A stretch of 64,000 nucleotides of DNA, taken from the NCBI RefSeq assembly GCF_022458985.1, contig NC_061789.1:15656357-15720356 (forward strand), given 5' to 3'. The notes beneath the pieces are model-generated. The model saw nothing but the letters and a program-made list of their open reading frames with translations, was not told the origin of the DNA and searched no databases. Position 1 is the first letter of the stretch. Each line of letters opens with the position of its first letter. Source of the DNA: Mugil cephalus (lineage: Eukaryota > Chordata > Actinopteri > Mugiliformes > Mugilidae). The translations under genes and the position numbers were made by a program. Positions 684 through 3,600 of this stretch are shown here, piece by piece.

Positions 684-3600
684 GAGGGAGACAGGCTGAG
701 CGACGAGGACCTCTACAAGTACCTTGCAGACATGCGCAGGCCGTCCTCGGTTCTGCGACGGCTCAGGCCTGTCACAGGTAAACGTGGCAAATACTTGCGT
801 CCAATTGTCTGGATTAATGTGTCACCGCTCATGAGGTTCACAGGGTTTATGTTTTGTTGCCTCCCCCCCCCGACAGCCCAGCTGAAGATTGACATTTCTC
901 CAGCTCCGGACTCGCCTCATTATTGTTTGTCACCAGAGCTGCTTCACGTGAAGCCTTATCCGGACCCGCGTGTTCGCCCGACCAAAGAGGTGCTGGAGTT
1001 CCCGGCTCGCTACGTGTACACGCCGCACACCACCTACAGGTGAGCGTTCGCCTGTTTGGACAGACGCTGCATGTTGACCTGTGGACTTTTACACGCACTG
1101 GTCACTGTGTGACATGGGTTTCATTATTGATTTTTGTCAAGTTTTGTCAGTACAGTGTATCCTTTTACCCACAGAGGACAGTGAATTTCAAACAGAGACA
1201 GATTTCGCTGATCTCATCACATCATTTATAAAACCAAAAACAAGCAATAAAACGATAGAACACTTGTATAAAATATGTTGTTACATTAGGACAAGATACT
1301 CTTTGGTGAACTCACAATCTTTTCTAATCTTTTTTTTTCTTTTTTTTCTTTTTTTTTAAAAAAAAACAAGGTTACAAACACAAGAAAAACAAAAACATTT
1401 GAGCCATAACAACAAAGACTAAAACATATGACTGATAGCAAAACTAGTTCCTGGTCATACGGTGGCTCTGTAGCATACACAGCAGGGCAGGAAGGGAGTG
1501 CAGTGATGATAAGGAGTTGAGAGCTTCGTGGGCTTCTGTCGCTCTGTTCAGTGTCACAAAGCTTCACTCTGGAAGAATCAGACGAAATGGCACATTGAAT
1601 CAATAAAAACATCAGAAGCTTAACGTCATCATAAGTTTGGAATTAGTAAGTTACCATTCTCTGCAGTCTGGAGAGCTTCTCATTCTCAGTCTCGATGTTC
1701 TCTTTGTGGAACTCGGTCAAATGCTGTAAGCCTCGCAAGATGTTGGAGTGCTCCTCTGCTCTTTCCTAAAAAAAAACAGGAGTAAAGTTTACTTTTTGTC
1801 ATGTTAAACTGTATGAGATTTTGCCCGGTGCCTTCACATTAACCAAAAAAAGCCCAAATGCAACAAGGTGGATGCCGTGACGATGAGAAGGACCCTGTGA
1901 GCTCATTACCTGCAGCTCCTTGATGCTGGCGGGTACAGAGTTGTTGATAAACATCTCCAACCACCTCACTTTGGTCCTCAGCTCCACCTCTTCCTTCTCC
2001 ATGCTGGTCAGCCAGTCTTTAGCTGTGGTGGTGTGAGTCTGTTGCTTGGCCATCTGGTTCTATCAAAAGAGCATCTGCACATATTAATTTCCTGCAACAA
2101 CAACAGTCCCAGTTTGGGTGCCAGCTGTCTACCCCAGAAAGTTCATGCAGCTTTATATCACGCTTATAACCCTGCTCAGATGTAAAAATATGATTTATCC
2201 ATATGCACCAAGAATGGAATAAAAATAAGGGTGATAATAGGAAGAAAAGAATGGTTTTATGTTCATGTAGCGTAGGAATTGTGTTTTGCAAATCTTAATG
2301 TCTGCTCAGCTCTCTCTGTCACGTTCACTGACTCTCTGAAGGTACAATCTGATTAGGACTCTAGATCCTCCACATACAGCATCTGTTTTCCTCTGCTCCC
2401 GCATATTTTACCGAGATCTCCATTCGATTGTAATTCTGAGTCTCCCCTGTAATTACACGGCCGTTCGCCTTCACACGGGAAATCTCTTGTTTACATACTT
2501 GCGCGCTCTCGTACCTGCAGCAACTGTAGCGCTTCTTTTATCTGCCTCTCCACCTCTGCGGCCTGCTCAGTCTCCTTCCCCAGCTTTTGCAGGGTCCCCT
2601 CGTGGCTCTTTAAAGTCAGCTTGATTTTCTCTATCTTCGCCTCAGTGGTTTGATAAACATAGTTAAGGGAGTCGCTGAACTGTATGGCGCCGAACATGAG
2701 CACGTTGACTTCTTCCTGCGCCCCGGCCTTGTCCTCCGCGCCGCCGCTCTTCCTGACGGGGCGCGCGTGGGCCGCCGCGAAAGCCCCGGCCACGCAAAGC
2801 AGACACAGGCTCCAGATCATTTTTTTTAGATAATAGCTTTTTCTCTACTTGGGTCGTTCGGAAGTTTGGGATTTTCTCTGCAAGGCTGTTAAGCCAGTTC
2901 AGTGAAAAAAGTTTTCAACTCGCGAGTTAAAAATCAAAGCTGGAGAAAGCTTTAGATTTTCTGTCAGCGCAGATGTTGGCATCATCAGCCCTCGACTGAT
3001 GAATCTGGAGGGGCGGCTGGTCGGCTTATATTGGATGCGCGCATGCAATATCGTGGTGAAACATTAGCTCAGTCGTGTTTCGGTCACAGGTCTCGTCCAT
3101 GGCCTTAGTCTCAGTGACCTTCCCTTGAAGTTTAACCCTTGCGATACCGGTTTTGTTATTCAGGTCACAAACGCATACGGCTTGCACAATAATGCATGTC
3201 ACACACATGTTTGGTGCGGAAAATATAATGTTCAACGATGGGAAGTCGGTAATCTGTGCAGTAAATGCTATTTATAGTTGTTCTAAAAATGTGCAACCCT
3301 GGCCAGTTTGCGTAACCCAATTGGTGGATAAAATCAGCTGTTCCAAAAGATGAACAGCAGTTACCTCTGATGTTTGTCTTGGACGTGCGTTGAGGTGACT
3401 TTCACCAAGTGAATCCTCTGCGAGGTCACGCTCTCCCCGTGCGTGCACATGTCACGTACTATCTTGCCTTTTTCTGAGAAGGCTATTTTTTGCGGGTGGC
3501 ACGGAGCGATGCGATATTGTTGACAATATAACGATTTAATTCTGTCGCCGTCCGTCTCTTTCTGCCTCTCAGGAACCTGCTCTACGTTTACCCGCAGAGC

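What the first reader, a model, noticed from the sequence alone, without database searches (positions are those of the whole stretch)
1554..2820. A complete angptl8 orthologue in a fish, antisense inside dock6
Seen: a four-exon, phase-consistent gene coding for a signal peptide, an ANGPTL8-type N-terminal motif ([10 protein letters not shown] against human ALNGVYRTTE) and coiled coil, with no fibrinogen domain. Known: ANGPTL8 in mammals lies in a DOCK6 intron and works with ANGPTL3 on lipoprotein lipase. I recall it often being described as absent outside mammals or tetrapods, which I have not verified. If that view is still current, this would place the DOCK6-linked duplicate and the loss of its fibrinogen domain before the fish-tetrapod split.
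Basis: partly seen in the sequence, partly recalled or inferred. Interest (0 to 1): 0.8.

Follow-up and report, generated by a model that had tools for sequence, protein, structure and literature searches.

The report
Fish ANGPTL8 gene inside dock6
This fish genome carries an intact version of ANGPTL8, a fat-metabolism hormone gene that published papers describe as existing only in mammals, sitting backwards inside the dock6 gene just as it does in people.

Summary
Four antisense exons (2820-2515, 2059-1910, 1765-1655, 1568-1554), all phase 0 with GT/AG borders, encode 193 residues (not 191). They lie in the dock6 intron between TTYR and NLLYV. In the same genome, angptl3a lies antisense in the matching dock7 intron. 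Recalled human ANGPTL8 has this gene as its best genome-wide match; recalled human ANGPTL3 finds other genes. An 11-row tree joins it to ANGPTL8 at 100/100; grouping it with ANGPTL3 is rejected at p 0.013, with this fish's own angptl3 pair at 0.003. No fibrinogen domain was found. Four held papers say ANGPTL8 is absent from fish or from non-mammals. Verdict: a real ANGPTL8 orthologue, so the dock6-linked paralogue and its loss of the fibrinogen domain most likely predate the fish-tetrapod split. Action with Angptl3 on lipoprotein lipase is inferred. Expression, and presence in a second fish, could not be tested.

The parts
2515..2820 (-). angptl8 exon 1: start codon, signal peptide, N-terminal ANGPTL3/4/8-type motif, first long helix (102 codons)
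   Evidence: gene model; tblastn of recalled human and mouse ANGPTL8 (E 6.9e-10, 7.7e-12 in the window); codon score; helix 28-101
1910..2059 (-). angptl8 exon 2, coiled-coil part (50 codons)
1655..1765 (-). angptl8 exon 3, 111 bp, homologous to the 111-bp exon 2 of angptl3a and angptl3b
1554..1568 (-). angptl8 exon 4: four codons and stop, where angptl3 goes on to fibrinogen-domain exons
   Evidence: no significant fibrinogen-domain match in the window
1040..3572 (+). dock6 intron (2533 bp) that hosts the gene; R codon split AG|G, as in the dock7 intron that hosts angptl3a
877..1039 (+). dock6 exon before the host intron (AQLKIDIS...TTYR)
   Evidence: PDB DOCK6 9vm2
3573..3690 (+). dock6 exon after the host intron ([12 protein letters not shown]..., start of DHR-1)
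684..17233 (+). dock6 exons present in the window (5' exons lie outside); last exon from 17191, stop at 17231-17233
   Evidence: only exons 684-6195 were spliced by script, the rest read by eye
28096..32771 (+). kank2-type gene downstream of dock6, same strand
   Evidence: exons joined by eye; PDB KANK1 and KANK2 score about equally on the ankyrin part; the N-terminal part resembles KANK2 as recalled only

Best explanation
It is the orthologue of mammalian ANGPTL8: a short secreted coiled-coil protein with no fibrinogen domain, encoded antisense inside dock6. An ancestral DOCK gene already carried an antisense ANGPTL gene in the intron before its DHR-1 domain; the early vertebrate duplications gave DOCK7 with ANGPTL3 and DOCK6 with ANGPTL8, and the DOCK6 copy ends right after the 111-bp coiled-coil exon. 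Shown here: gene structure, position, paralogous intron, absence of the fibrinogen domain, tree placement. Inferred, about 0.55: the protein is secreted by liver or fat, joins Angptl3 through its first helix and changes how strongly the complex inhibits lipoprotein lipase, probably after feeding. The confidence below is for orthology of an intact gene, not for the function.
For: Intact four-exon frame with coding-type codon use. Local alignment to recalled hA8 136 (z 12.9-14.2), to hA3 99 (5.6-6.5), to hA4 58 (4.0-4.2). Best genome-wide match of recalled hA8 is this gene, E 8.1e-6; recalled hA3 has 9 matches up to E 10, led by angptl3a (6.2e-45) and angptl3b (3.2e-39), and this gene is not among them. 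Tree with A8 100/100; AU rejects grouping with all A3 (p 0.013), all A4 (0.015), the two own angptl3 (0.003). Host dock joins DOCK6 96/96, a separate C6 dock joins recalled DOCK7 94/94; without the recalled row 95/95 and p 0.024 against joining the C6 dock. angptl3a lies in the matching dock7 intron, antisense, same split codon. Human ANGPTL8: DOCK6 intron 14, opposite direction (PMC5592946), four exons (PMC4284785). The fish protein finds only its own locus at E 0.001. No FReD. Human zipper positions L35 L38 L45 L49 L60 L67 (PMC9036128) read V L F L I L here.
Against: Very long branch (5.2 changes per column; the tool warns that long branches meet) and only 37 of 159 identities to human ANGPTL8, against 29-31 of 155 for four ANGPTL3 rows. 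The genome-wide margin of hA8 is modest: 34.2 bits here, 29.5 for angptl4a. Letters shared only with A8 were 16, only with A3 13, only with A4 6 in the 7-row set; in the 11-row set 12 with both A8 rows, against 7 with both mammalian A3 and 8 with both own A3. PDB and Pfam searches with the protein gave no convincing hit. Of three ANGPTL4 residues said to regulate its activity (H46, Q50, Q53), recalled human ANGPTL8 has all three and the fish protein one (F43, Q47, D50). It has one N-glycosylation sequon (N141), while ANGPTL8 is described as lacking such sites. No transcript data. Tree unrooted, mammalian rows recalled. Costa et al. searched 15 fish genome assemblies and reported no ANGPTL8. 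Whether the host intron is human intron 14 exactly was not settled.
Confidence: 0.9

Rival explanations
1. Convergent truncation: the dock6-linked copy kept its fibrinogen domain in the last common ancestor, and fish and mammals each lost it. The gene is still the positional orthologue of ANGPTL8 (so this overlaps with the best explanation), but the ANGPTL8 way of working arose separately.
For: Long branch and low identity; loss of 3' exons is easy; no intermediate species were available.
Against: Both proteins end soon after the coiled-coil stretch that corresponds to the 111-bp exon, both genes have four exons, and 12 columns are shared with both ANGPTL8 rows and no ANGPTL3 or ANGPTL4 row.
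Confidence: 0.1
2. A teleost-specific truncated copy of angptl3 that moved into dock6.
For: Similarity to ANGPTL3 is real (score 99, 0 of 2000 shuffles).
Against: Grouping with this fish's angptl3a and 3b is rejected, p 0.003; a copy landing antisense in exactly the paralogous intron would be an odd chance; human ANGPTL8 has the same kind of address.
Confidence: 0.03
3. Decaying or untranscribed relic of ANGPTL8.
For: Long branch, no transcript evidence.
Against: Open frame over four exons, canonical splice sites, codon use like dock6 and kank2, conserved first-helix residues.
Confidence: 0.06
4. Orthologue, but with a changed job: it no longer acts on lipoprotein lipase (overlaps with orthology; it replaces only the functional part of the best explanation).
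For: Two of three polar motif residues differ (F43, D50), added N-glycosylation sequon.
Against: Recalled human ANGPTL3 also differs at two of those three places (N, Q, H), and ANGPTL3 inhibits lipase (PMC9604320, passages); zipper positions stay hydrophobic.
Confidence: 0.3

Closest known systems
Mammalian ANGPTL8 (betatrophin, lipasin, C19orf80)
   Same: Antisense in a DOCK6 intron, four exons, short secreted-type coiled coil, no fibrinogen domain, ANGPTL8-type first helix, no cysteines in the mature part (only Cys6 and Cys9)
   Different: 37 of 159 identities; 193 against 198 residues; F43 and D50 in place of human H40 and Q47; one N-glycosylation sequon
ANGPTL3 / angptl3a and angptl3b of this genome
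   Same: Coiled-coil region homologous; 111-bp exon with the same borders; angptl3a sits antisense in the matching intron of dock7
   Different: Fibrinogen domain present in angptl3a and 3b, absent here; the coiled-coil exon 1 of angptl3a is unsplit, here it is two exons; different chromosome and host
ANGPTL4 / angptl4a and angptl4b of this genome
   Same: N-terminal motif region and coiled coil align
   Different: ANGPTL4 is not in an intron of another gene per PMC4172915; fibrinogen domain present; grouping rejected, p 0.015

Membership tests
ANGPTL8 | Gene lies antisense inside an intron of DOCK6 | tested here: met
   host placed with DOCK6 at 96/96, with a separate dock7 in the same genome. 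Exact human intron number not settled
ANGPTL8 | No fibrinogen-related domain | tested here: met
   the recalled ANGPTL3 domain has no significant match in the 64 kb window (best E 0.075, in dock6); stop in a 15-bp last exon
ANGPTL8 | Sequence groups with ANGPTL8 rather than ANGPTL3 or ANGPTL4 | tested here: met
   with recalled mammalian rows and a long branch
ANGPTL8 | Four-exon gene | tested here: met
   human number from PMC4284785. Human exon borders were not compared
ANGPTL8 | Secretion signal and N-terminal helical coiled coil | tested here: inconclusive
   hydrophobic N-terminus by eye; helix 28-101 in a single-sequence model of exon 1; no signal-peptide or coiled-coil predictor was run
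ANGPTL8 | Forms a complex with ANGPTL3 and raises lipoprotein lipase inhibition | not testable with these tools
   needs recombinant protein
ANGPTL8 | Feeding-induced expression in liver and fat | not testable with these tools
   no RNA data
ANGPTL3 | C-terminal fibrinogen-related domain | tested here: not met
ANGPTL3 | Hosted by DOCK7 | tested here: not met
   angptl3a is in dock7 on C6

The most novel reading that the evidence does not exclude
ANGPTL8, and with it an Angptl3/8 switch on lipoprotein lipase, is an old bony-vertebrate system that arose with the DOCK6/DOCK7 duplication and long predates GPIHBP1 and mammals; its reported absence from fish and other non-mammals is a detection failure caused by fast sequence change, with true losses only in some lineages.
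Probability: 0.5. Interest if true: 0.78.

Novelty: new member of a known kind. Interest (0 to 1): 0.62.

Why it matters
ANGPTL3/8 is being targeted with antibodies to lower triglycerides (PMC9036128). Papers describe ANGPTL8 as a mammalian gene and tie it to mammalian traits: homeothermy, pregnancy and lactation (PMC4284785), and a speculated need to make large amounts of lipase in cardiomyocytes (PMC11529983). A fish orthologue removes the premise of those ideas for fish, moves the origin of the gene back before the fish-tetrapod split, and makes it possible to ask, in fish, which lack GPIHBP1 (PMC8319833 and PMC11529983), what the ANGPTL3/8 pair did first.

Tried and rejected
PDB and Pfam searches with the spliced fish protein gave nothing convincing; recalled human ANGPTL8 has no convincing PDB match. 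tblastn in the phage collection: no match. Looking for stray vertebrate dock6 loci in genome contigs and viral contigs: none, so no second fish was available.

Host identity was first doubtful: the DHR2 part of the window dock scores higher to DOCK7 than to DOCK6 in the PDB (563.8 against 532.6 bits), letters shared only with DOCK7 were 29 against 8, and letters polarised by DOCK8 were 6 to 6 in DHR2, 10 to 1 for DOCK6 in the C2 part with DOCK7 recalled; plain identity in C2 was nearly a tie, 144 and 142 of 182. Trees settled it: 89/94, joining DOCK7 rejected at p 0.023, then 96/96 with a separate dock7 from the same genome. KANK1 and KANK2 could not be told apart on the ankyrin part.

Proving that the host intron is human intron 14 failed: F635 set against the PDB chain puts N549 after the intron, but Thr723 in exon 19 falls, by hand count, on a tyrosine in that numbering; the same or the neighbouring intron remain open. 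Searches and passages on DOCK6 exon numbers did not help. The paper cited for the origin of ANGPTL8 (Quagliarini 2012) is not held. A zebrafish paper that names ANGPTL8 does not report a fish gene (PMC9604320, its two passages).

Full report
What is there. On the minus strand between 1554 and 2820 there are four exons (2820-2515, 2059-1910, 1765-1655, 1568-1554) with GT/AG borders, all in phase 0, coding for 193 residues. Against a codon table from dock6 and kank2 exons, exons 1 and 2 score above 348 of 348 and 354 of 354 stretches of 18001-27000, which I took as noncoding; exon 3 is reached by 8 of 356. The splice donors rank 2nd, 3rd and 5th of 201 GT sites on that strand in 1-4000.

Resemblance. 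Local alignment scores: human ANGPTL8 136, mouse ANGPTL8 128, human ANGPTL3 99, human ANGPTL4 58; shuffle means are 34-51; 0 of 2000 shuffles reach the ANGPTL8 or ANGPTL3 scores in each of three shuffle types, 5-6 of 2000 reach the ANGPTL4 score. Within the window, tblastn with ANGPTL8 hits exon 1 at 6.9e-10 (human) and 7.7e-12 (mouse). The ANGPTL3 and ANGPTL4 coiled coils have no significant hit to the gene (best E 0.25, mouse ANGPTL4 on exon 1; ANGPTL3 only 1.9 on exon 2), and the ANGPTL3 fibrinogen domain has none anywhere (best 0.075).

Whole genome. The window is part of contig C20 of a 634.8-Mb genome in 24 contigs. The fish protein finds only its own locus at E 0.001 (3 matches). Recalled human ANGPTL8 has 5 matches up to E 10: this gene (8.1e-6), angptl4a (2.3e-4), angptl3b (3.6e-3), angptl3a (3.9e-3) and angptl4b (1.0). 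Recalled human ANGPTL3 has 9: C6 (6.2e-45), C7 (3.2e-39), C7 (2.1e-17), C6 (1.9e-8) and five weak ones from E 0.1; the window gene is not among them. Fibrinogen-domain exons lie beside the first four. I name these four angptl3a, 3b, 4a, 4b from the matches and the tree. The same search with ANGPTL4 did not complete.

Tree. With these four genes and six mammalian rows, the window gene joins ANGPTL8 at 100/100. Forcing it with all ANGPTL3 rows costs 13.8 log units (p 0.013), with all ANGPTL4 rows 13.8 (p 0.015), with the two own angptl3 rows 15.5 (p 0.003). A first tree with seven rows gave 99/97 and p 0.036 and 0.040. The window branch is very long (5.2) and the tree is unrooted, so the tree alone would not be enough. 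Identities: 37 of 159 to each ANGPTL8, 29-31 of 155 to four ANGPTL3 rows, 28 of 152 and 24 of 150 to the own angptl4 rows, 20 of 105 and 17 of 107 to mammalian ANGPTL4. Letters shared with one group only: 12 with both ANGPTL8 rows, 7 with both mammalian ANGPTL3, 8 with both own angptl3, 3 with all four ANGPTL3, 2 with all four ANGPTL4.

Address. The host is dock6: its DHR-1 and flanking part aligns to the full-length DOCK6 chain 9vm2 over 447 residues (723.7 bits). DOCK7 is close enough to confuse: the DHR2 part scores higher to DOCK7. Trees place the window dock with DOCK6 (89/94; 96/96; 95/95 without the recalled DOCK7 row) and another dock of the same genome, on C6, with recalled DOCK7 (94/94). 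Downstream lie a kank2-type gene and a globin cluster; Wetten et al. 2010 (PMC2975663, passages read) report ANKRD25, DOCK6 and HuC beside a cod globin cluster; ANKRD25 is, as I recall, an older name of KANK2.

The strongest single point is the paralogous intron. On C6, angptl3a (matches from 21458271 to 21461003, plus strand) lies between the dock7 exon ending in TTYR (about 21462878) and the one starting NLLYV (about 21454118), dock7 being on the minus strand. That is the same intron, with the same split codon AG|G, in which the window gene lies in dock6, also antisense. Human ANGPTL8 is described in DOCK6 intron 14 in opposite direction (PMC5592946), and human ANGPTL3 on the strand opposite DOCK7 (PMC4284785). 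So the pair of addresses is best explained by duplication of one ancestral DOCK gene with an antisense ANGPTL gene inside, as already proposed (cited in PMC4172915 and PMC8319833; the latter puts the duplication before the mammalian branch, without naming fish). Whether the human intron is exactly this one I could not prove.

Gene ending. Exon 3 of the window gene is 111 bp, as is exon 2 of angptl3a and 3b, and they begin and end at the same alignment columns. In angptl3 further exons with the fibrinogen domain follow; here a 15-bp exon with the stop follows. Only 514 bp of host intron remain beyond the stop (1040-1553). angptl3a has one unsplit exon where this gene has two; four exons are also given for human ANGPTL8, but I did not see its borders.

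How it most likely works. In mammals ANGPTL8 joins ANGPTL3 through leucine-zipper-like positions in the first helix and the complex inhibits lipoprotein lipase (PMC9036128, passages read; the authors call their model preliminary). Here the six ANGPTL8 zipper positions read V, L, F, L, I, L and exon 1 folds as a long helix (28-101; single-sequence model, mean pLDDT 81.6). Of the three polar ANGPTL4 residues named, one is kept (Q47), two differ (F43, D50). An Angptl3 partner exists in the genome in two copies. I therefore infer a secreted Angptl3 partner acting on lipase, at about 0.55, with a changed job at about 0.3.

Against what is known. Costa et al. 2017 searched 15 fish genome assemblies with human queries and reported ANGPTL8 only in mammals (PMC5237311; abstract, passages, section 5 read). 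Tseng et al. 2014 say it is not in birds, amphibians or fish (PMC4284785, passages). [quoted passage not shown] a 2023 pig paper repeats the 2017 statement (PMC10475376, passages). My searches of the held library for ANGPTL8 with teleost, zebrafish, fish, DOCK6, aquaculture or orthologue terms listed no paper that, by title and start of abstract, reports a fish ANGPTL8; most listed papers were not opened, and searches listed only 40 of 69,992, 30 of 33 and 30 of 36. One opened zebrafish paper does not report one in its passages. Annotation databases could not be consulted, and an automatic gene prediction under this name may well exist.

Verdict. A real gene and, with high confidence, the ANGPTL8 orthologue. 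It is a new member of a known kind that contradicts a repeated statement in print. One species only, no expression data, and recalled mammalian rows are the main limits.

Noticed in passing
window 36434-63237: Globin gene cluster; copies at 58154-58704 and 62543-63175 have stretches 97-98% alike, and 44044-44343 / 44797-45096 are identical tandem copies, which suggests recent duplication or gene conversion.
   Followed up: no
L013, L020, L021 (C7:21583800-21613700): The second angptl3 copy (angptl3b) has no exon matching the dock6 query (E 0.01) within about 15 kb on the left and 10 kb on the right, so it may have lost its dock7 host after the teleost duplication; a longer intron is not excluded.
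   Followed up: partly
L014 and L015 (angptl4a, angptl4b): These angptl4 coiled coils keep a stretch of roughly 50 residues that the recalled mammalian ANGPTL4 lacks (alignment), so the short mammalian ANGPTL4 coiled coil looks derived.
   Followed up: no
window 1-1553, minus strand: The first AATAAA or ATTAAA after the angptl8 stop is at 579, 975 bp on and beyond a dock6 exon, so the 3' end of the transcript is unknown.
   Followed up: no
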